The notes: generated by a model not told the origin, from the letters alone. A stretch of 64,000 nt of DNA from Halobium salinum (GCF_026586625.1 NZ_JAODIW010000006.1:81408-145407); one strand, 5' to 3'. Positions 9,032 through 22,846 are shown, numbered from the stretch's first letter. A program made the numbers and translations.

Positions 9032-9682
9032 CTATGCCCGGAGCTCCGGCGGCTTCTCGCCGACCCCGAGACGCGTTCGCGAGCTGTACCACGTGTGGAC
9101 GAGCGCCGAGAGGAGGACGGCGCCGAGCGCGAGCCCGGCCCACACCGCGACCTGGAGGAGTCCGAAGGGGGAGACCCCGAACTGCGCCCCGAGCACGGTG
9201 GTGATTCCCAGCGCGGTCAACCCGACGTAGTACGGTCCCCACGGAACCGCTCGCTCCGAGACGACATCGAGGTACACGTCCAGCCCCGCCGCCGTCTCGC
9301 CGAGGGCGGCCCGACCTCGTCGACTGTCGTAGTCGACGAACCCGTGGTCGTCCAACTTGGGGAGATGAAACTGGTGGAGCGCGGTGTGGACACGCTTGCG
9401 CTCCGCGCGGTCGACCCGTTCGACCGGCTTCTCGTTCTCCCACGCGGCGACCTGCTCGGCCACGTCGCGGACCTCGACCACCTCGCCCGACCGACGGCCG
9501 AGATAGTGAAGCGTGTAGCGCCGTCGCCGGTTGCTGAGCACGTCGAACACCTCGTCCGGTGTCGCCCCCGAATCCGGCTCACCGTCGTCGGCCGCGGGCG
9601 GTGCCGCCCCCTCCGAGCGACCCTCGACGTGGTCGTCGGTCCGCTCCCCGCTCGATGTCGACTGCTGCTGCGTCGCGCTCAT
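9032..9682 (-). CDS. DUF7344 winged-helix protein with two C-terminal membrane helices
   Basis: 216 residues. A disordered, polar N-terminal tail (about 1-45) is followed by the DUF7344 winged helix: DEVFDVLSNRRRRYTLHYL, then EVRDVAEQVAAWENEKP, RKRVHTALHQFHLPKLDDHGFVDYDSRRG and ETAAGLDVYLDVV. Two hydrophobic helices near the C terminus (about 155-200) suggest membrane anchoring, so this is probably a membrane-tethered transcription factor. The ATG at 9682 overlaps the stop of a 24-codon upstream frame as ATGA. First of four anchored DUF7344 genes in the window. Confidence 0.85.
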   Translation of the reverse strand: MSATQQQSTSSGERTDDHVEGRSEGAAPPAADDGEPDSGATPDEVFDVLSNRRRRYTLHYLGRRSGEVVEVRDVAEQVAAWENEKPVERVDRAERKRVHTALHQFHLPKLDDHGFVDYDSRRGRAALGETAAGLDVYLDVVSERAVPWGPYYVGLTALGITTVLGAQFGVSPFGLLQVAVWAGLALGAVLLSALVHTWYSSRTRLGVGEKPPELRA

Positions 9683-9753
9683 AGTTCCTCGTCCGACCCC
9701 CTGTACCGCGGTGGCCGCCCCCGCTTTCCCGTACCGTTCGACTCGTCCGTCAT
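9679..9753 (-). CDS. Putative 24-residue coupled upstream small ORF
   Basis: Reads MTDESNGTGKRGRPPRYRG followed by SDEEL and a TGA that overlaps the ATG of the downstream DUF7344 gene (ATGA). A TATA-like AAATGATAC box on the minus strand near 9783-9792 would place transcription start about 10 bases before this ATG, so it would be the first start codon met by the ribosome. The peptide has a basic Gly/Arg/Pro core and acidic ends and resembles nothing I recognise. It may be a real microprotein, a leader that couples translation, or chance. Confidence 0.4.
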   Translation of the reverse strand: MTDESNGTGKRGRPPRYRGSDEEL

Positions 9754-9975
9754 ACGACGGCTGACACACTCCGGAGGAGGAGTATCATTTCACCGTCTGG
9801 GCTGTGACCGGCGGGTGAACGATGGTACATAACTGTTTCTCAGTCGGCATCGACCGTTCACTGATGACAGATATGCGGCGGGAGAACCAGTATCGGAAAA
9901 ATAACTACCACGCGGAATGATACCATCCATTACAGTTATACGGTGGTGTCGGTAGCTCTCCGGTGGGGTCGATAG

Positions 9976-10749
9976 ATGCCGTTACAGGAGCGCGAACGAG
10001 AGATAGTGGCGACCGTCTTCGACCGGTCGGAATTGATCGACCGGCTGCTCGACGGCCCGAAGGAGAAGCGCGAACTGGTCGAGGAGCTTCCGGTGTCACG
10101 CTCGACGGTGAACCGAGCGATACGGGAGTTGGAGACGCTCGAGTTGGTCGAGCGGGTCGACGAGGGGTATCGAGTCACGGACCTCTGTCGGTCGACGACG
10201 ACCCGACTCTCCGCCCTCGTCGACTCCGTGGGGTACGAGATGCGCCTTCAGAAGTTCCGCAAGTGGGTGCCGGACGGGACGCTGGAGTTCGACCTCGCAG
10301 ACGCCGACGACGCCACGGTCCTGCTCCCGGAGCCGGGGAACCCGTACGGGATGGTGAACAGGCACGTCGAACGGCTCCGTGAGGCACCGTCGCACCGGTC
10401 CGTGCTTCCACTCACCGGACTGCACGGCTACGAAGCCGTCCACGACCGCGTCGTCGAGGCCGGCGTCGAGACGACCGTCGTCGCCGCCCCATCCGTCGTC
10501 GACGTGCTCGTGACGGACCCCGAGTTCGAGCCGCTCACCGACGCGCTGACCGAGACGGACCGCTTCAGGCTGTTCGAGACCGAGGAGCCGGTGCCCTACT
10601 TCGTCGGCGTCTACGGCGATGTCGTCCAGTTCGGGGTCGACGACGACGGCGACCCGCGAGCGCTGTACGAGACCACCGACACGACCGTTCGAGAGTGGGC
10701 GAACCGGCGCATCGACGACTACGTCGAGCGTGCAGAACGGGTTCTTTGA
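9976..10749 (+). CDS. FilR1-like winged-helix transcriptional regulator
   Basis: 257 residues. The N terminus (about 10-75) is a winged helix: LIDRLLDGPKEKRELVEELPVSRSTVNRAIRELETLELVERVDEG, with the recognition helix at SRSTVNRAIRELE. The remainder matches the middle/effector domain of the FilR1 (methanogenesis regulator) type family, seen as VLPLTGLHGYEAVHDRV, TTVVAAPSVVDVLV and PYFVGVYGDVVQFGVDD, ending in a helix EWANRRIDDYVERAERVL. Ligand and targets unknown. AGTTATACGG near 9932-9941 may be its TATA box. A paralogue with the same architecture is at 14362-15159. Confidence 0.87.
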   Translation: MPLQEREREIVATVFDRSELIDRLLDGPKEKRELVEELPVSRSTVNRAIRELETLELVERVDEGYRVTDLCRSTTTRLSALVDSVGYEMRLQKFRKWVPDGTLEFDLADADDATVLLPEPGNPYGMVNRHVERLREAPSHRSVLPLTGLHGYEAVHDRVVEAGVETTVVAAPSVVDVLVTDPEFEPLTDALTETDRFRLFETEEPVPYFVGVYGDVVQFGVDDDGDPRALYETTDTTVREWANRRIDDYVERAERVL

Positions 10750-10800: not shown

Positions 10801-11448
10801 CTACATCGGTCGTCGACGGAGCCCCACCGCGAGCGTCACGGCGGCGAAGAGGCTCGTGACGACGGCGCCGACGTAGCTGGTGAGCAGACTCGGGACGAGA
10901 CCGACCCACGTGGCGGCCGCCAGGAGCACGCTGAAGACGGTCGCGCAGCCGTAGTAACGCGTCGCGCTGTCGGTACTCCCGGTCGGCGCGTCGGTCGGTC
11001 CCTCCGGAGTCCCGTCCACGTCGAGGTACCGGCCGATCTCTCCGGCGAGCCCGGTGGGTCGGACCGTCCCGCGGGACTGTTCGTACTCTATCACGCCGTG
11101 CTCGTCGAGCTTCGGCAGGTGGCTCTGGTACAGCGCGATGTACACGCGCTGGCGCTCGGTCGACGTGATAGCCGCTACGGGCTTGTCCTGCTCCCACGCG
11201 GCGACCTGTTCTGCGATGTCGCGCATCTCGAACGACTCCGTCTCCGGGCGCTCTCGAACGTATCGCAGGACGCCGCGGCGACGTGCGTTCTGCAACAGGT
11301 GGAACACGTCGTCGGCGCACAACGTCGGGTCGCGGCCGCTCGACGCGGAGTCGACAGCCGCGTCTCCCTCCGCGTCCGAACCGGCGTCGAGGCCGGTCGT
11401 CCGCTCGTCGTCCGCGCCGACGGCCGCCGCGTCCTGGTGTGCGCTCAT
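10801..11448 (-). CDS. DUF7344 winged-helix protein with two C-terminal membrane helices
   Basis: 215 residues. Polar N-terminal tail, then the DUF7344 fold: DDVFHLLQNARRRGVLRYV, EMRDIAEQVAAWEQDKP, RQRVYIALYQSHLPKLDEHGVIEYEQSRGTV, and ETIGRY-like end of the wing. Two hydrophobic helices (about 150-210: YYGCATVFSVLLAAATWVG and SYVGAVVTSLFAAVTLAVG) would anchor it in the membrane. It differs from the other copies in N-A-R-R-R instead of S-N-R-R-R-R. It converges on the FilR1-like gene. A TTTATC box about 35 bases upstream supports the start. Confidence 0.85.
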   Translation of the reverse strand: MSAHQDAAAVGADDERTTGLDAGSDAEGDAAVDSASSGRDPTLCADDVFHLLQNARRRGVLRYVRERPETESFEMRDIAEQVAAWEQDKPVAAITSTERQRVYIALYQSHLPKLDEHGVIEYEQSRGTVRPTGLAGEIGRYLDVDGTPEGPTDAPTGSTDSATRYYGCATVFSVLLAAATWVGLVPSLLTSYVGAVVTSLFAAVTLAVGLRRRPM

Positions 11449-11809
11449 TGTCGTACTCGGGCCGACGGAGAGACCGGTGATAAACCCGAGACGCCGTTCA
11501 GCCGTTTCCGACCGTTCACGAGCGTTCGAACGGCCCCGAAACGCCCGTCTCGGATACTCTCGCGGCCGTCGTTGTCGACGGTGCCCCGACTAGTCGTGAA
11601 CGGAACGCTCCCGGAAGGAAGTCGGCTGAAACGGCCCGAAACGGTCCCAAACGCGCGATTGATGATGGGAGCCGGACACACGGCGCTCCGGAGTGAGAGA
11701 CGTCGCGGCGGACTGACCGCGACGGACGGGCGGACGGCCTCGCGAGCGGAGCATCGGCCGGCGAGAAGGGTATCGAGCGACGAGCCGGGCCGGGCGACCC
11801 GGCCGGAGA
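11449..11809. other. Intergenic region with promoter and repeated CGTTCA motifs, no gene seen
   Basis: No convincing coding frame. Near the right edge of the DUF7344 gene there is a minus-strand TATA-like GTTTATC (about 11479-11487). Around it several copies of CGTTCA or TGAACG occur (11494-11499, 11513-11518, 11598-11603) and a GCGTTCGAACG palindrome (11522-11532). The same hexamer occurs upstream of the other DUF7344 genes. Confidence 0.5.
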
Positions 11810-14361: not shown

Positions 14362-15159
14362 TCACCCACCGACGACGAGTTCCGGGGTCAGTCGCCTCGC
14401 GTGGTCGCGGTAGTCGTCGATAGTCCGGTCGACCCACGCCACGACGGTGGGGTTCTCACTCTCGATTACCGCCCGGGGGACGCCCTGGTCGTCGATGGGG
14501 ACGATGACGGCGACCCCGTCGGCGACGCCGAGCATGACCGGCACCTCACCGTCGTAGCAGTAGACTGCGGCGCCGTCCGACGCCACCATCCGCCGCGTCC
14601 ACTCGCGCATCTCGGGGTCCGCGAGGGCCGTCCCGACCGCCGCTGCCGAGAGAATCACCTCCTGGGTCTGCTCTCCGCCGACCACCCGGCGGTGTTGGAG
14701 TCGCATCGTGTCGCGGAAGACGGAGCCGGACAACACCTGCACGTGCGCGGCCTCCTGCACGAGCGACTCGGCCCGGCGGATGTGGGCGAGGACGTCGCTC
14801 CGAGTGGGGAGCGTGACCGTCGCGTCGCGGAACTCGTGGAGGTCGAGGTCCATCCCGTCGAGGGGGAACCACGCCGACACCGCACCGAGACGCTGCATCG
14901 TCTCGACGGTCCCCAGCAGGTCGCCGAACTCCTCCGCCAGGAGTGCGCCAAAGGGGGTGACGCGGTAGACGCGGTCCTCCTTCCTCGCCCACCCGCGCTC
15001 ACAGAAGTCGTCGAGAATCCGACCGAGTGTCGCCTGCGAGGCGCCGATGCGGTCGCGGAGTTCACTACGTGTGTGGGGCCCCCGGGACAGTTCGTCGAGC
15101 ACCTCGACCCGGCGTCCGGAGCGGGCGAGGAACTCGACGTCGTCCAGGGGCGTTCGCAT
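14362..15159 (-). CDS. FilR1-like winged-helix transcriptional regulator
   Basis: 265 residues. N-terminal winged helix (about 5-75): DVEFLARSGRRVEVLDELSRGPHTRSELRDRIGASQATLGRILDD, with recognition helix SQATLGRILDDFCERGWA. The effector domain (about 110-250) resembles the FilR1-type middle domain: HVQVLSGSVFRDTMRLQHR, VVGGEQTQEVILSAAAV, VYCYDGEVPVMLGVADGVAVIVPIDDQG, ending VAWVDRTIDDYRDHARRL. This is the same architecture as the gene at 9976. ATG at 15159; the longer open frame upstream is antisense to the cupin and hisA genes and not credible. Confidence 0.87.
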   Translation of the reverse strand: MRTPLDDVEFLARSGRRVEVLDELSRGPHTRSELRDRIGASQATLGRILDDFCERGWARKEDRVYRVTPFGALLAEEFGDLLGTVETMQRLGAVSAWFPLDGMDLDLHEFRDATVTLPTRSDVLAHIRRAESLVQEAAHVQVLSGSVFRDTMRLQHRRVVGGEQTQEVILSAAAVGTALADPEMREWTRRMVASDGAAVYCYDGEVPVMLGVADGVAVIVPIDDQGVPRAVIESENPTVVAWVDRTIDDYRDHARRLTPELVVGG

Positions 15160-16934: not shown

Positions 16935-17087
16935 GAATACCCATCAGACGGGCGTCAGACGAGCCGATGACGAGCTCTGCAGGGTTCTCGCTCCGTAGAG
17001 CGGTGTCGGTCGCCGATGGCGGGTCACGGACACCACTCGACGGGTCAGTCTGTCTCGGTACGGGCTCAATCGAGTGACTCGGCGCGA

Positions 17088-17096
17088 AACGTTCAA
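17088..17096 (+). promoter_or_regulatory. Candidate operator AAACGTTCA upstream of DUF7344 gene
   Basis: The 9-mer AAACGTTCA lies 90 bases before the TATA box of the gene at 17221. The same 9-mer stands 91 bases before the TATA box of the paralogous gene at 20395. The shared position suggests a conserved binding site. Confidence 0.45.
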
Positions 17097-17177
17097 TTTC
17101 ACGGACACCTAGGACGGCGAATTCGGCCGGGAAACGGCTCCTGTCGGTTGCACCGTCCCGAAACGGACTATGTCACC

Positions 17178-17188
17178 GATTAATTAAG
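17178..17188 (+). promoter_or_regulatory. TATA box of DUF7344 gene
   Basis: GATTAATTAAG, 43 bases before the ATG at 17221, nearly the same as GATTAAATAAG before the gene at 20395. It argues against the ATG at 17203, which would lie before or at the transcription start. Confidence 0.65.
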
Positions 17189-17220
17189 CCACATATCTCG
17201 CAATGAGTGAGCGCGATATC

Positions 17221-18006
17221 ATGTCATCTGAGGGAGTGGCCGAGTACTCGGTCTCGGAGGAGGAATCGGACGGCGTCACCACCACGCAGTCGGACGCTGA
17301 TGCGGTGACGGCGACCCGGTCGGAGGGGGAGCGCGGTGAGTACGAGCGCGTGAACGGCGAGGCGGTCAGACCGGTGACCACGTCGCCGACCGCCGACGGC
17401 GAGCAGTCTACGGCGGGGACAGACACGTCGGGGGGTTCCGACACGCTCGAGTCGGTCGAGCGGGAGATGTCGACGCCGACGCCTCTCTCCGACGATTCGG
17501 TGTTCGAAGTCCTCAGTAACCGGCGTCGCCGACTGCTGTTGCACTACCTGCGCCGCCACGACGGCACGGCCGTCGAGCTCTCCGAACTCTCCAGTCAGTT
17601 GGCCGCCTGGGAGCAGGAGACGACGCCGGAGATGATCAGTTACGCCGACCGGAAGAACGTCCACACCGCGCTGTATCAGTTCCACCTCCCGAAGATGGAG
17701 GACGCGGGGTTCGTCGACTACGACCAGCGTTCGGGGAGCGTCGAACTGACTGAGGCCGCACGGGACCTCGAGGTCTCCATCGGTTCGACGACCGACCGGA
17801 AGCGGGTCCCGGAACGCTACCTCCTTCCCGTCTCGGCCGTCGGTCTCCTGCTCGCGACAGCCTCCTGGCTCGGGGTCGGCGCAGTCACGACCCTCTCCGG
17901 GTCGGCGTGGGCCGTCCTCATCGCCGCCACGTTCCTCGCCGCGTCGGTCACCGTCGCGTATCGGACCCGGTCGACCGACCACTCCGACTCGGTCGACCCG
18001 CTCTGA
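17221..18006 (+). CDS. DUF7344 winged-helix protein with two C-terminal membrane helices
   Basis: 261 residues. A long acidic, Thr/Ser-rich N-terminal tail (about 1-88), then the DUF7344 winged helix DSVFEVLSNRRRRLLLHYL, ELSSQLAAWEQETTPEMI, DRKNVHTALYQFHLPKMED, AGFVDYDQRSGSVELTE; two hydrophobic helices follow (about 195-250). Probably a membrane-tethered regulator. I start it at 17221: the ATG is preceded by TATC and followed by TCATC exactly as in the paralogue at 20395, and TATA spacing agrees; the in-frame ATG at 17203 is the alternative. The core is close to identical to the 20395 gene. It converges on the signal peptidase/DUF1102 operon. Confidence 0.87.
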   Translation: MSSEGVAEYSVSEEESDGVTTTQSDADAVTATRSEGERGEYERVNGEAVRPVTTSPTADGEQSTAGTDTSGGSDTLESVEREMSTPTPLSDDSVFEVLSNRRRRLLLHYLRRHDGTAVELSELSSQLAAWEQETTPEMISYADRKNVHTALYQFHLPKMEDAGFVDYDQRSGSVELTEAARDLEVSIGSTTDRKRVPERYLLPVSAVGLLLATASWLGVGAVTTLSGSAWAVLIAATFLAASVTVAYRTRSTDHSDSVDPL

Positions 18007-18162
18007 GTCGTTCCCCCACCCGTCGAACGGGACACCGCCCGATTCCCTCCCTTCCCTGTTTCTCGCCCCCGACCCGTCCGCCGAGTTGTCGACTCTCCTC
18101 TCGGACGTCGTCACGCTGCCGGTCGTTACGGTCGCTCGTACTGCCTCGGCCGGTCCCCTCCT

Positions 18163-19308
18163 TCACCTGAACCGGCGACCCAACCGCCCGAGGAGGGATG
18201 GCCCGTCGCGGGACCGGTCGCGGATGCGACCCGTCCCGAGCAGCGCGACCCCCAGGAGGTAGAACGGCACCCCGAGCAGGACGTCGATGGCGACGATGGG
18301 CGCCCACGGATGCATCTCGTACAGCGCGTCGATGACGCCGACGGGAAGCAGGGCGAGGTAGCGGTGTTCGACCACGTAGCGGCGGTAGTAGCCGGTCTGC
18401 TCGGCCGCGTGGAGCGTGACGGTCGCCGCCGCCTGCCCGCCAGCGGGGAGCACCCGTCTCGACTCCGCGACCTCGACGCCGTCGCTCGCGGGTTCGACGT
18501 AGCTGACGACCGGGAGCACCCCGGAGTTCACCAGCGGGTACTCGACGTCGTTGGACTGCCCTACCGGAATGACGGTCGGCTGTTCGGACTCGAACTCCGC
18601 GCTGACGACGCCGTACTCGTGGGTCCCGGCGGGGACGACCATGGCCGCCGTCGCGCCGGCGACGAGCAGGAGGGCGAAGCCGGCGGCGACGTACCGGGCG
18701 TCGAGGTTCGTCTCGCGTTTTCTGGAGCGGGTCGTCCTCCGCTTGTCGCCGGTCCACCAGCCGTGGGCGTAGAACAGTGCGGTGGCACTGAAGAAAAGAT
18801 ACGCGAGGCCGTTGGTGCCGAGCAGTGAGCGGGTGCCGAGGGTTGTTGCTATCGTCTGTTGGACCGTAGTGACGGTGTCCGAGAGAGCCATTATCGCGGT
18901 CCCGAGATACGGGATGACGACAACGTTACCGTTTATTTGGAGGGCTTCGGCGACGATTTGAGCGTCTTTGACCGGGGGTTCTTTGCCGTCCTGGTCGGTG
19001 AAGGGGTTCGCGTCACCTTTCGTGATGTACCCTCTATCGGTCTCACGGACCACTCGATGGGTCGTGAGGCCGCCTCCATGCAGTTCTTTTGCTTCGAAAA
19101 TGATGACATCGCCTACGTCCGGGGGGCCAGTAACTCCGTGCGGAACTGCGACAAACCCGTCACCAGCATCTATCGTATCAGCCATACTCCCGCTTTTGAC
19201 ATATCCCAACAAAATCGGCTGTCCGACTATTTGTCCAACAACTGGAAGTAGCACTACGACCACCACTGCGATTACTACAATACGGAGTATTTGGTCTCTG
19301 CCCGTCAA
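18163..19308 (-). CDS. Archaeal-type signal peptidase I (S26B) with extended C-terminal region
   Basis: 381 residues. N-terminal membrane helix (about 8-27), then the S26 catalytic region: KSGSMADTIDAGDGFVAV with nucleophile Ser41, GDVIIFEA, LTTHRVVRE with His84 (archaeal and SipW-like enzymes use His instead of Lys), and YITKGDANPFTDQDG with the conserved Asp. After residue 160 come two more helices (about 160-180, 205-225), an extracytoplasmic beta-rich domain (about 228-330) and a final helix pair. The gene is 55 bases downstream of the DUF1102 gene in the same operon, so it is probably its dedicated peptidase. The catalytic part is AT-richer than the C-terminal part. Confidence 0.92.
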   Translation of the reverse strand: MTGRDQILRIVVIAVVVVVLLPVVGQIVGQPILLGYVKSGSMADTIDAGDGFVAVPHGVTGPPDVGDVIIFEAKELHGGGLTTHRVVRETDRGYITKGDANPFTDQDGKEPPVKDAQIVAEALQINGNVVVIPYLGTAIMALSDTVTTVQQTIATTLGTRSLLGTNGLAYLFFSATALFYAHGWWTGDKRRTTRSRKRETNLDARYVAAGFALLLVAGATAAMVVPAGTHEYGVVSAEFESEQPTVIPVGQSNDVEYPLVNSGVLPVVSYVEPASDGVEVAESRRVLPAGGQAAATVTLHAAEQTGYYRRYVVEHRYLALLPVGVIDALYEMHPWAPIVAIDVLLGVPFYLLGVALLGTGRIRDRSRDGPSLLGRLGRRFR

Positions 19309-19363
19309 TTATGGTGGTGAAATATTGGTGGTATACTAGTGCTACTTGCGTAGATGGTCTATG

Positions 19364-20026
19364 TCAGTTAATGAAATCCACGCTCGAAGTACCTTCACTC
19401 GGGAAAGTGTAGTTCGGCACGACATTTTTGAAGTATTCCGAGTCGACAGCTGCGGCGTTCACACCAATATCCGCTTCGTACATGCTCCCGATATCGTCTT
19501 CTGGAACATCATAGAACCCAAGCGCGATTTCTGCCCGCTTACCCGGTGCAAGGAAGACGCCCCAGGCGCCAGGAGCACCACTTGTCCCCTGCCCTGACGA
19601 GGTGCCATCCCCGCCGTCCATCCCAGCACCGTAGCTGTCCATCGAGAGGTACGAGGTTACGTACTGTCCGTCGTTCGTGCTGGGGTCTGGCCCAATCTGA
19701 GCATTCAGGTCGTTGAGGTTCAACCAGACCAGCACGTTCTCAGTTCCTTGGTTCCTGACGAGTAGGAGGTCTGTGAACTCGGTGGTGGCGTTCCCGTTCA
19801 GACCACTACCTCGACCATTATTCTGAATATCGACCTGCAGAGTCCCGTTAGTCTGAGACGTGTAATCCGGGTCCCCTTTGATTTGCAGGTAAGCGTTTTC
19901 GTCGCTACTCACGTTCACGTTCATTCCTCTACTCGCACTAACAGACGAGAACGCACCAGTACCCATTGCAGCCGCCCCGCCGGCAGCGAGCGATCCCATA
20001 CCGAGCATGAACTTGCGTCGTTCCAT
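19364..20026 (-). CDS. DUF1102-family secreted protein
   Basis: 220 residues from ATG 20026. Signal-like N terminus MERRKFMLGMGSLAAGGAAA with hydrophobic stretch, then MGTGAFSSVSASRG, which is the start shared by DUF1102 proteins; the mature domain begins MNVNVSSDENAYLQIKGD and is rich in Asn, Gly and Thr (VRNQGTENVLVWLNLNDLNA, EIALGFYDVPED). No C-terminal anchor is visible. DUF1102 proteins are exported beta-rich proteins of unknown function; by neighbourhood with a SipW-like peptidase they recall TasA/camelysin fibre subunits (inference). The DNA is clearly less GC-rich than its surroundings. Transcribed with the signal peptidase. Confidence 0.85.
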   Translation of the reverse strand: MERRKFMLGMGSLAAGGAAAMGTGAFSSVSASRGMNVNVSSDENAYLQIKGDPDYTSQTNGTLQVDIQNNGRGSGLNGNATTEFTDLLLVRNQGTENVLVWLNLNDLNAQIGPDPSTNDGQYVTSYLSMDSYGAGMDGGDGTSSGQGTSGAPGAWGVFLAPGKRAEIALGFYDVPEDDIGSMYEADIGVNAAAVDSEYFKNVVPNYTFPSEGTSSVDFIN

Positions 20027-20262
20027 TGTCGTAGTTCTCCTTCGTCGCGCCCCCAACCCACCCCCGGGCCGGCGGCGCTTCGCTTAGTCGCAAGTTGCGA
20101 GAGGGATGTTGTTATTGAGAACAGTGAGTCGGGGTAACGACGTTCCGGAGCCGTGACAATAGCGTTCCACGGTTCGTCTAGGGAGAGCGGTCGAACCCGT
20201 CAAAGATGCCCGGACAGGGCGTTAACCACAGATTATTGTCGAGTCGTGTCAGACGAATTGCA

Positions 20263-20288
20263 AAACGTTCACTTTAGCCTGAACGTTT
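20263..20288. promoter_or_regulatory. Perfect inverted repeat, candidate operator
   Basis: AAACGTTCA, an 8-base spacer (CTTTAGCC), then TGAACGTTT. Each arm is 9 bases and the match is perfect. It lies 91 bases before the TATA box of the DUF7344 gene and between two divergent operons, so it could serve both. Half-site shared with 17088-17096. Confidence 0.6.
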
Positions 20289-20353
20289 CGAGATGAAGAT
20301 TGTGGTCCGAGGAATCGTTTCAGGACGTGACCGTTGGAAAGTCCGATGGGTCC

Positions 20354-20364
20354 GATTAAATAAG
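20354..20364 (+). promoter_or_regulatory. TATA box of DUF7344/mucin-like operon
   Basis: GATTAAATAAG, 41 bases before the ATG at 20395, in GC-rich surroundings; matches the box at 17178. Confidence 0.65.
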
Positions 20365-20394: not shown

Positions 20395-21195
20395 ATGTCA
20401 TCCATGGGAGATTCCGACCCCTCCGCCGTTCGCGGAGTGGAGAGGGGACGGGACGAGGGGCAGGGGGCGGACGAGGCGAAAGCGGGGGGAACGGTCGACG
20501 CTGCGTCGTCGCCGGAGAGGCCCGACGCGACCGACGTCGCCAGTTCGACCGCCGCGGCCGAGTCGGCCGAGGGGGGTCGCTCGACCGGCTCGGTCTCCGA
20601 CGCGGTGGGGAGTGCCGAGTCGCCGACCCGCTCGGACGACGGCGACCGCTCGCTCGATACGATCTCACAGGACGAGGTCTTCGACGTTCTGAGCAACGAG
20701 CGGCGGCGATATCTGCTCTACTACCTGAAGCAGTCCGACGACGAGGTGGTGGAGCTCTCGGACATCTCGAGTCAGTTGGCGGCGTGGGAGCAGGAGACGA
20801 CACCGGAGTACATCGACTACGCCGACCGGAAGAACGTCCACACCGCGCTGTATCAGTTTCACCTCCCGAAGATGGCGGAGGCGGGGTTCCTCGACTACGA
20901 CAAGCGGTCGGGTCGCATCGAACTCACGGACCACGCGCGCAATCTCGACGTCTACTTGGAGACCGTCTCCGGGCGCGACGTCCCGTGGGGGGTGTACTTC
21001 CTCGGGTTGTCGCTCGTGACGACCGCTGTCGGCGTCGCCTCGTGGTTGGGGCTGGGTCCGCTGGCTGCCGTCCCGACCGGCGTTCCGGCGCTGTTCGTCG
21101 CCGTCGCCTTCCTCGTCTCTTCGGCCGTGTTCGCCTATCGGACGCACTTCGAGATGCGAGTGGAACCGGTCGGCGCGTCCGCCGAGCGGGAGTGA
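20395..21195 (+). CDS. DUF7344 winged-helix protein with two C-terminal membrane helices
   Basis: 266 residues. Disordered acidic/Ser-rich N-terminal tail (about 1-85), then DEVFDVLSNERRRYLLYYL, ELSDISSQLAAWEQETTPEYI, DRKNVHTALYQFHLPKMAEAG, FLDYDKRSGRIELTDHARNLDVYLE, and two hydrophobic helices (about 195-245). Very close paralogue of the gene at 17221 in the winged-helix core, at DNA level too. The mucin-like gene starts 4 bases after its stop, so the two form an operon. Probable membrane-bound regulator of surface genes (inference from neighbours). Confidence 0.88.
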   Translation: MSSMGDSDPSAVRGVERGRDEGQGADEAKAGGTVDAASSPERPDATDVASSTAAAESAEGGRSTGSVSDAVGSAESPTRSDDGDRSLDTISQDEVFDVLSNERRRYLLYYLKQSDDEVVELSDISSQLAAWEQETTPEYIDYADRKNVHTALYQFHLPKMAEAGFLDYDKRSGRIELTDHARNLDVYLETVSGRDVPWGVYFLGLSLVTTAVGVASWLGLGPLAAVPTGVPALFVAVAFLVSSAVFAYRTHFEMRVEPVGASAERE

Positions 21196-21199
21196 GTCG

Positions 21200-22846
21200 A
21201 TGGCCCGACGACGCACCGCCACGTTGGTGTTGGTAGCCGCGGCGGGACTGCTCCTCGTCACGGGGACCGGGAGCTTCAGCTCGGCCGACTTGGGACGCGG
21301 GCTGCAGATCGGCGTCGCCGACGACGATTCGGCGTACCTCGGCTACGAACCGCTCGGTCTCGTCGACGGGGAGCCGAAAATCCGACTCACCAACCGCGTA
21401 CCCGGGGGTCAGACACTAACAGTCGGCGTCAGCCTGGCGAGCGATGGGACACAACTCGGGTCGGTCACCCTCGGCAGCGGCGAATCGGCAGAGCTGACTC
21501 TGACTGGTGCGGAGTGCGCCGACCGTGTCGAAATCGTCGCGGACGGCACCGGCACCAGCGTCGAGATGACCCGTCGTGTCTGTGGGGCCGGTGGTGCTTC
21601 GGTCGGCGGCTCCGGCGGCGAAGCGGGTGTGTTCCCGGCCGCGAACCCGGCGAACGACTCCGGCGGGCTGTTCGGGTCGAACTCCACGTCCGACTCGACG
21701 CCGCTCGACACGTCGACGGCCACACCGACGGCGACGCCCGACGTGTCGGCGCCGACCGGTGGCTCTTCATCCGACCCGACTACGACGGCAGAGACCGGCG
21801 CCTCGACGGTCGCGTTCGCTTCGGTTCCCGCGCCGTCGACCACGCCTACTGATGAGGGGGCGACGACAGCCGCCAACGCGAGCGAGCGAGCGACGGTCAC
21901 AACGACGGCGAATGTGACGACCACGACGGCGAATGTGACGACCACGACGGCGAACCGTACCACGATGAATGGAACCACGACGGCGGCCAACGCGACGACT
22001 ACGACGACGGCCAACGCGACGACTACGACGACGGCCAACGCTACCGTGGCGGCGAACGAAACCACGACAGCGAACACGACTACGACGACACCGAACGCGA
22101 CCGCGTCGGCCGCTACGACCACGACGGTAGTGAACGAGACGGCTACGTCGACCCCGGCGCCGAACACGACGGCACAGCAGGTACCGAACAGTACTCAGAC
22201 CGAGTCGGAGAACACGACAGTGACGCCAATACCGACCGGTACTGCGACCACCACGAACGAGTCGACGCCCGGTACCGAAACGACGACTCCCAGTGAGTCG
22301 CCGACGACGACCGGGTCGTCGACGACCCAGACGGCTCCGACTCCGACGACGCAGACGGTTACAACCACGACTACCGAGGACGATACGACGACTACGGCCC
22401 CGAGACCGACGACCGACACGACGACTCCGACACCAGTTGCCACTACGTCGGCCACGACCACGCCCCCGACGACGGCGAACACGACGACACGAACGACTAC
22501 GACAACCGCGTCGGTCGCGCCGACCACGCCAACTACGACCACCACAGCCGAGACGACTACGCCAACTACGACCACCACAGCCGAGACGACCACGTCAACT
22601 ACGACCACCACAGCCGAGACGACCACACCGACCACGACCACTTTACCCGCGACCACCGAACCGACGGCTACGTCCACGGTTACGACGACGCCGACCGAAA
22701 CAGCCGAGACGCTGAACTCGACCGAGACGACGGTAGGGTCGACCGAGACGCCGACCGTGGAACCCACCGCCTCGACGACCGACCGACCCGATTCGCGAAC
22801 GACCGCGTCCACGAACGCTACCGGTTCGACAGTAACGTCGGACTGA
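21200..22846 (+). CDS. Mucin-like secreted protein: DUF1102-type head plus Thr-rich, sequon-rich tail
   Basis: 548 residues. A hydrophobic N-terminal segment (ATLVLVAAAGLLLVTGTGSF) runs into a DUF1102-like domain (about 20-135): GTGSFSSADLGRGLQIGVA and DDDSAYLGYEPLGL parallel the GTGAFSS...DENAYL start of the protein at 19364. It contains two cysteines (Cys102- and Cys121-region) that could pair. From about 145 to the end the chain is low-complexity Thr with Ala, Pro and Asn, holding about twenty N-x-S/T sequons and an 11-residue tandem repeat. No C-terminal membrane helix or PGF-type sorting motif is seen. Likely exported and heavily glycosylated. Four bases after the DUF7344 stop. Confidence 0.8.
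   Translation: MARRRTATLVLVAAAGLLLVTGTGSFSSADLGRGLQIGVADDDSAYLGYEPLGLVDGEPKIRLTNRVPGGQTLTVGVSLASDGTQLGSVTLGSGESAELTLTGAECADRVEIVADGTGTSVEMTRRVCGAGGASVGGSGGEAGVFPAANPANDSGGLFGSNSTSDSTPLDTSTATPTATPDVSAPTGGSSSDPTTTAETGASTVAFASVPAPSTTPTDEGATTAANASERATVTTTANVTTTTANVTTTTANRTTMNGTTTAANATTTTTANATTTTTANATVAANETTTANTTTTTPNATASAATTTTVVNETATSTPAPNTTAQQVPNSTQTESENTTVTPIPTGTATTTNESTPGTETTTPSESPTTTGSSTTQTAPTPTTQTVTTTTTEDDTTTTAPRPTTDTTTPTPVATTSATTTPPTTANTTTRTTTTTASVAPTTPTTTTTAETTTPTTTTTAETTTSTTTTTAETTTPTTTTLPATTEPTATSTVTTTPTETAETLNSTETTVGSTETPTVEPTASTTDRPDSRTTASTNATGSTVTSD
22526..22624 (+). repeat. Three 33-base tandem repeats in the Thr-rich tail
   Basis: Three contiguous 33-base units (22526-22558, 22559-22591, 22592-22624) differing at only a few bases, followed by a decayed fourth. 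Each encodes 11 residues of the form T-P/S-T-T-T-T-T-A-E-T-T. Shorter near-repeats occur at 21910-21955 and 21990-22040. Length polymorphism between strains would be expected. Confidence 0.85.

What the first reader, a model, noticed from the sequence alone, without database searches (positions are those of the whole stretch)
17088..20364. Duplicated promoter architecture with a perfect inverted-repeat operator
AAACGTTCA stands 90 bases before the TATA box GATTAATTAAG at 17178 and again 91 bases before GATTAAATAAG at 20354. At the second site it is part of a perfect 9-base inverted repeat (20263-20288, spacer 8). The equal spacing in otherwise diverged intergenic DNA implies selection for a regulator-binding site. 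CGTTCA/TGAACG copies also lie upstream of the DUF7344 genes at 9032 and 10801, suggesting autoregulation or cross-regulation.
Basis: seen in the sequence. Interest (0 to 1): 0.6.

Follow-up and report, generated by a model that had tools for sequence, protein, structure and literature searches.

The report
Likely operator of archaeal fimbrial regulators
The repeated DNA motif is real: it is a probable binding site in the switch region between a gene for a membrane-anchored DNA-binding protein (DUF7344) and genes for TasA-like surface fibres, a pairing that recurs across salt-loving archaea, often with a related palindrome in helically spaced arrays.

Summary
Observation confirmed, with a one-base correction. 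AAACGTTCA lies at 17087 and 20263, each exactly 91 bases before its TATA-like box; the second forms a perfect 9-8-9 inverted repeat (20263-20288). The 4.46-Mb genome has only 13 copies of the 9-mer, three of them here. It fails as a general rule: relatives' DUF7344 promoters are not enriched. The stronger signal is elsewhere. The repeat sits between DUF7344 and a divergent TafE/TasA-like plus SipW-like operon, an arrangement found in 18 other genera of 7 families. Those intergenic regions carry TTCARG-N5-CYTGAA, often three or four copies every 32-33 bp (fresh regions: 26 sites against 0.3 expected). The repeat's right arm, read towards TafE, is that half-site (CGTTCAGGC), but the spacer is one base short and there is no array. 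Best reading: a lineage-specific operator through which DUF7344, predicted here as a winged helix with two membrane helices, controls itself and the fimbrial operon. Binding is untested.

The parts
17087..17095 (+). AAACGTTCA, single arm (GAAACGTTCA from 17086), 91 bp before the TATA-like box
17178..17188 (+). TATA-like box GATTAATTAAG of DUF7344 gene 1
17221..18006 (+). DUF7344 gene 1 (probable start ATG 17221, MSSEG..., matching the MSS start of its paralogue; the mechanical ORF starts at 17203)
18163..19308 (-). SipW-like signal peptidase I (start uncertain)
   Evidence: TIGR02228 E 8.5e-14 just under cut-off, SipW model E 2e-8; 57-59% identical relatives next to DUF7344/TafE
19364..20026 (-). 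TafE/TasA-like exported protein, divergent from DUF7344 gene 2
   Evidence: NCBIfam TafE E 1.4e-18, below its cut-off
20263..20288 (.). perfect inverted repeat AAACGTTCA-CTTTAGCC-TGAACGTTT (proposed operator)
20277..20285 (-). CGTTCAGGC = half-site of the conserved TafE-promoter palindrome, overlapping the repeat's right arm
   Evidence: half-site matrix from relatives scores 9.4, P 2e-4 per position
20315..20326 (+). second half-site TCGTTTCAGGAC, the best matrix match in the intergenic region
   Evidence: score 13.9, P 1.5e-5 per position
20354..20364 (+). TATA-like box GATTAAATAAG of DUF7344 gene 2
20395..21195 (+). DUF7344 gene 2: predicted winged helix (residues 92-177) plus two probable membrane helices (198-217, 229-253)
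21200..22846 (+). Thr/Ser/Asn-rich exported protein with a GTGSFSS signal-peptide end like that of SipW substrates, directly after DUF7344 gene 2
   Evidence: no family match
9816..9860 (.). TGAACG (9816) and CGTTCA (9855) upstream of the DUF7344 gene 9032-9682 (-)
11495..11602 (.). CGTTCA (11495, 11513, minus-strand gene view TGAACG) and TGAACG (11597) upstream of the DUF7344 gene 10801-11448 (-)

Best explanation
The inverted repeat at 20263-20288 is an operator in the divergent promoter between DUF7344 gene 2 and a TafE/TasA-like plus SipW-like fimbrial operon; the single arm at 17087 is the matching upstream site of the paralogue DUF7344 gene 1. DUF7344 proteins (predicted winged helix in front of two membrane helices) bind CGTTCA-type half-sites as dimers, well upstream of the BRE/TATA region, and so control their own genes and the fimbrial operon. 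Shown: the sites, their rarity, their enrichment upstream of this genome's DUF7344 genes, the conserved gene pairing, and a conserved palindrome (often an array) in the same promoter in other genera with one half-site inside the window's repeat. Inferred: that DUF7344 is the protein that binds, that it acts as a dimer, the sign of regulation, and that the window's repeat descends from or replaces the TTCARG-N5-CYTGAA operator.
For: Site geometry and rarity. CGTTCA is rank 1 of 2080 hexamers upstream of 29 DUF7344 genes, 18 against 3.4; held-out 25 genes, 10 hits, permutation P about 4e-4, similar for upstream lengths 150-300 bp. DUF7344 sits near TafE-like genes in 11 of 18 DUF7344-centred and 16 of 20 TafE-centred neighbourhoods, often with a SipW-like gene. 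CCTGAA is the top hexamer in 21 divergent regions, 22 against 3.3, P 1e-11. The palindrome stands out only at spacer 5: 6 of 21 regions against 0.2, and 26 sites in 8 of 10 freshly fetched regions against 0.3. A half-site matrix built without the window picks the repeat's right arm and a site 39 bp away as the two best positions in the window's intergenic region. Winged-helix model with block-mean pLDDT about 87-97 over residues 91-180.
Against: No binding or expression data. CGTTCA is not enriched upstream of DUF7344 genes in relatives, and 19 of 29 DUF7344 promoters here lack it. The window's repeat has 8 bases between TTCA and TGAA, the relatives' palindrome 9. The window has no 32-bp array, and the genome has no exact TTCAGG-N5-CCTGAA. 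The closest TafE relative (68% identical, G060) has no such repeat in its TafE promoter. The single arm at 17087 has no second arm. The PDB fold search gave only weak matches (best E 0.08).
Confidence: 0.55

Rival explanations
1. The sites are operators, but of a different regulator (for example one of the FilR1/HVO_A0261-type proteins encoded nearby or a global haloarchaeal factor) that controls DUF7344 and fimbrial genes together; DUF7344 is a target, not the binder.
For: Enrichment shows only that DUF7344 genes carry the site. A helix-turn-helix regulator gene (9976-10749) shares the 9816/9855 site region with a DUF7344 gene, and a FilR1/HVO_A0261-type gene lies at 14362-15159. CGTTCA occurs in only 10 of 29 DUF7344 promoters.
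Against: The regulator-like gene found beside the conserved palindrome across 18 genera is DUF7344, itself a predicted winged-helix protein.
Confidence: 0.25
2. The shared AAACGTTCA and equal spacing are leftovers of the duplication that produced the two DUF7344 genes; the inverted repeat is a chance or structural feature without regulatory meaning.
For: The paralogues are 44% identical. The two promoters remain weakly similar in register outside the block (37/101). A 9-base perfect inverted repeat occurs in 6% of control upstream regions.
Against: The genes are old and the rest of the upstream DNA is close to saturated, yet the 9-mer is intact in both. The core motif is enriched in other DUF7344 promoters of the genome. 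The conserved half-site falls in the repeat's arm.
Confidence: 0.17
3. The repeat forms an RNA hairpin (terminator or attenuator).
For: The arms can pair as a 9-bp stem.
Against: It lies upstream of the TATA-like box of DUF7344-2 and about 240 bp upstream of TafE. The fold is no more stable than shuffles (z 0.10). No terminator-like site was found there. Relatives keep a palindrome at DNA level with a variable centre.
Confidence: 0.03

Closest known systems
Conserved palindrome TTCARG-N5-CYTGAA of DUF7344/TafE divergent promoters in other haloarchaeal genera (described here; no publication found)
   Same: Same place between the same two genes; half-site CGTTCAGG shared with the right arm of the window's repeat.
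   Different: Window: TTCA-N8-TGAA instead of N9, arms extended outward to AAACG/CGTTT, no 32-33-bp array.
ArnR/ArnR1 of Sulfolobus (paralogous transmembrane proteins with N-terminal helix-turn-helix in the archaellum regulatory network; mentioned in PMC13286277)
   Same: Membrane-anchored HTH regulators, paralogous, tied to a surface-filament operon.
   Different: Different lineage; no sequence relation was tested; their targets are archaellum genes, not TasA-like fimbriae.
Bacillus subtilis tapA-sipW-tasA matrix operon (PMC9674648, PMC10151520)
   Same: SipW-type signal peptidase encoded with TasA-like exported fibre proteins.
   Different: A bacterium; from general knowledge its operon is controlled by SinR/SlrR, not by a divergent membrane winged-helix protein.
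Divergent autoregulated regulator-target pairs with palindromic operators (general kind, bacterial and archaeal winged-helix regulators; own knowledge)
   Same: Regulator gene and target operon back to back with a dyad between them.
   Different: DUF7344 is an unstudied family (no paper), with a long disordered N-terminal tail, two membrane helices and many paralogues (30 domain matches in this genome).

Membership tests
DUF7344 (PF24035) | Pfam model above its gathering score | tested here: met
   All four window genes: 98.7-105.5 bits against a cut-off of 27.8
DUF7344 (PF24035) | sequence-specific DNA binding (inferred for the family, not established) | not testable with these tools
   The fold is a winged helix by prediction only; PDB fold matches weak
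TTCARG-N5-CYTGAA operator class of TafE promoters | half-site TTCAGG in the DUF7344/TafE intergenic region | tested here: met
   20277-20285 (-) and 20315-20326 (+)
TTCARG-N5-CYTGAA operator class of TafE promoters | two half-sites with spacer 5 (TTCA-N9-TGAA) | tested here: not met
   Window has TTCA-N8-TGAA; best full-palindrome match only 8 of 12
TTCARG-N5-CYTGAA operator class of TafE promoters | array with 32-33 bp period (seen in only part of the relatives) | tested here: not met
   No repeat of 12/17 or better at lags 15-119 in the window region
TafE fimbrial adapter proteins (NCBIfam) | equivalog model above cut-off | tested here: not met
   TafE model E 1.4e-18 but 67 bits against a cut-off of 155: related, not certified as TafE itself
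SipW signal peptidase (NCBIfam) | equivalog model above cut-off | tested here: not met
   SipW 33.9 bits against 190; archaeal signal peptidase I TIGR02228 51.7 against 51.85
ArnR-like membrane HTH regulators | homology to ArnR | not tested
   Only architecture compared, from a passage of PMC13286277

The most novel reading that the evidence does not exclude
Haloarchaea control TasA-like fimbriae through a family of membrane-anchored winged-helix regulators (DUF7344) that read helically phased arrays of 17-bp palindromes, so that the promoter is held at the membrane; in the window's lineage the operator has drifted to a long-armed AAACGTTCA dyad, and its core has spread to other DUF7344 promoters, giving a cross-regulated network among up to 30 paralogues.
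Probability: 0.3. Interest if true: 0.7.

Novelty: new member of a known kind. Interest (0 to 1): 0.5.

Why it matters
DUF7344 is a large family with no described function (30 domain matches in this genome; no paper found). The site, the conserved pairing with a TasA-like/SipW-like operon and the phased palindromes turn it into a testable regulator of archaeal surface fibres, possibly biofilm matrix, with a defined 26-bp probe and a defined target operon. Shared use of one box by many paralogues would also offer a tractable archaeal regulatory network.

Tried and rejected
A protein scan of genome contigs gave only three distant loci. CGTTCA as a general DUF7344 box in relatives: rejected. Conservation of the exact repeat in the closest TafE homologue G060: absent. 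An RNA hairpin or terminator: disfavoured. A second ACGTTCA dyad at C11:451715 has spacer 9, lacks the outer AA/TT and lies within open reading frames; not pursued. Other GACCGTTCA copies (46 in the genome) lie in coding and intergenic DNA with no clear second regulon in the 30 loci examined. Haloferax CsmR was considered as a possible DUF7344 protein, but the paper names no DUF domain. A first gene caller trained on longest ORFs mis-called strands and was replaced by one trained on acidic ORFs.

Full report
CHECK OF THE OBSERVATION. The sequence facts hold. AAACGTTCA begins at 17087, 20263 (+) and 20280 (-); the last two form a perfect inverted repeat with an 8-base spacer. The probable start codons also correspond: ATG 17221 (MSSEG) and ATG 20395 (MSSMG), 43 and 41 bases after the starts of the boxes. 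The 9-mer occurs only 13 times in the 4.46-Mb genome. Against random pairs of 110-bp upstream stretches, a shared in-register run of 9 or more has P 0.002 and the overall in-register identity of 46/110 has P 0.003. A perfect 9-base inverted repeat by itself is not remarkable (21 of 347 control upstream regions). Outside the block the two promoters still agree at 37/101, slightly more than chance, so shared ancestry of the two paralogues (44% identical) may explain part of the equal spacing.

The genome has 30 PF24035 matches. In 200 bp upstream of 29 of these genes, CGTTCA/TGAACG is the most enriched of all 2080 hexamers relative to 343 control upstream regions (18 against 3.42, Poisson P 2.6e-8; 10 genes). 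Because four of these genes prompted the idea, I removed them: the other 25 genes have 10 hits against about 2.6 expected (permutation P 3.6e-4; genes with two or more hits P 4.4e-4). The result holds for 150-300 bp upstream but not for the first 100 bp, which suits an upstream element rather than a core-promoter element. Several copies read GACCGTTCA; 6 of the genome's 46 copies of that 9-mer lie upstream of DUF7344 genes. The same test in DUF7344 promoters of relatives is negative (ranks 574, 683 and 67). The box is therefore a feature of this lineage.

WHAT LIES AROUND IT. The perfect repeat is in the 368-bp divergent region between DUF7344 gene 2 and a gene for a TafE/TasA-like exported protein (NCBIfam TafE E 1.4e-18, below its cut-off), followed on the same strand by a SipW-like signal peptidase gene. 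This pairing is widespread. Among 18 DUF7344-centred neighbourhoods of relatives, 11 have TafE-like and 9 SipW-like genes nearby. Among 20 TafE-centred ones, 16 have DUF7344. These sets were chosen as best hits, so the fractions are not unbiased. Divergent DUF7344/TafE regions were taken from 20 further genomes of 18 genera in 7 families.

THE CONSERVED PALINDROME. In the 21 divergent regions the top hexamer is CCTGAA (22 against 3.3, in 12 regions, P 1e-11). Its copies form a dyad, TTCARG-N5-CYTGAA. Spacer 5 stands out sharply: 6 of 21 regions reach 10/12 against 0.2 in shuffles, while no other spacer exceeds one region at that score. TafE upstream regions show it too (8 of 28 against 0.6; some are the same genomes), while 0 of 347 control promoters of this genome reach 10/12. 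In ten regions fetched afterwards there are 26 sites in 8 regions at spacer 5 against 0.33 in shuffles. In genus g13 the copies form arrays of three or four with a 32-33-bp period upstream of the TafE promoter, for example L289 at 502/534/566/599 and L299 at 1187/1220/1252/1284. A lag analysis over 39 regions shows peaks at 21-22 and 32-33 bp, two and three helical turns. A scan of 243 genomes for the exact palindrome gave 30 loci, of which 6 have DUF7344 or TafE within 1.5 kb; my rough expectation, from about 15 DUF7344 and 3 TafE genes per genome, is about 0.5. The palindrome is not clearly commoner genome-wide than its reversed control, so its position, not its number, carries the signal.

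LINK TO THE WINDOW. A half-site matrix built only from relatives gives its two best scores in the window's intergenic region at 20315-20326 (P 1.5e-5 per position) and at that arm (P 2e-4 per position). However, the window has TTCA-N8-TGAA where the relatives have N9, it has no array, and the genome has no exact copy of the relatives' palindrome. I therefore do not file the repeat as a member of that operator class. I claim only that it occupies the same promoter, shares a half-site and probably works alike.

THE LIKELY BINDER. DUF7344 gene 2 is predicted with high local confidence as a winged helix (helices 92-99, 102-113, 121-132, 142-163; strands 166-169, 174-177), followed by two probable membrane helices, 198-217 and 229-253, after a long disordered N-terminus (10-sequence alignment, pTM 0.46). 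Foldseek lists several winged-helix regulators (AntR, Csa3, MarR and HxlR types) first but with weak E-values (best 0.08). No PDB relative was found by sequence and no paper mentions DUF7344. A membrane-anchored HTH pair regulating a surface filament is known in Sulfolobus (ArnR/ArnR1, PMC13286277); this is an analogy only.

VERDICT. The box is a lineage-specific element of a subset of DUF7344 promoters, and the perfect repeat most likely serves a DUF7344/TasA-like fimbrial divergent promoter that carries a recognisable, often arrayed palindrome in other haloarchaea. Shown: sequence, enrichment, gene pairing, palindromes and phasing. Inferred: identity of the binder, dimer binding, sign of regulation, and descent of the window's repeat from the common palindrome.

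Noticed in passing
L289 502-615, L293 794-906, L295 825-938, L299 1187-1300, L257: Three or four 17-bp palindromes at 32-33-bp period upstream of TafE in genus g13; an iteron-like, helically phased array in an archaeal fimbrial promoter.
   Followed up: partly
TafE upstream regions L211-L238: GGTCAA/GTCAAC (26 and 29 against 5.6 and 7.2) and ATTGTA/TTACAA (17 and 13 against about 2) are also strongly enriched; perhaps lineage variants of the operator and the core promoter.
   Followed up: no
whole genome, L014-L043: 30 DUF7344 matches in one genome, five of them within window 5.5-21.2 kb; the reason for the expansion is unknown.
   Followed up: partly
window 21200-22846: 548-aa exported protein, largely Thr/Ser/Asn/Pro repeats after a GTGSFSS signal, directly after DUF7344 gene 2; may be a fibre or stalk component.
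   Followed up: no
window 9683-9975: DUF7344 gene 9032-9682 diverges from a helix-turn-helix regulator gene (9976-10749); the TGAACG/CGTTCA pair lies between them.
   Followed up: no
L046 900-5170, L047 1000-2640: Other haloarchaeal contigs with several DUF7344 genes side by side.
   Followed up: no
G000 C14:196806-196857: Three copies of GACCGTTCA upstream of one DUF7344 gene, start-to-start 32 and 11 bp.
   Followed up: no
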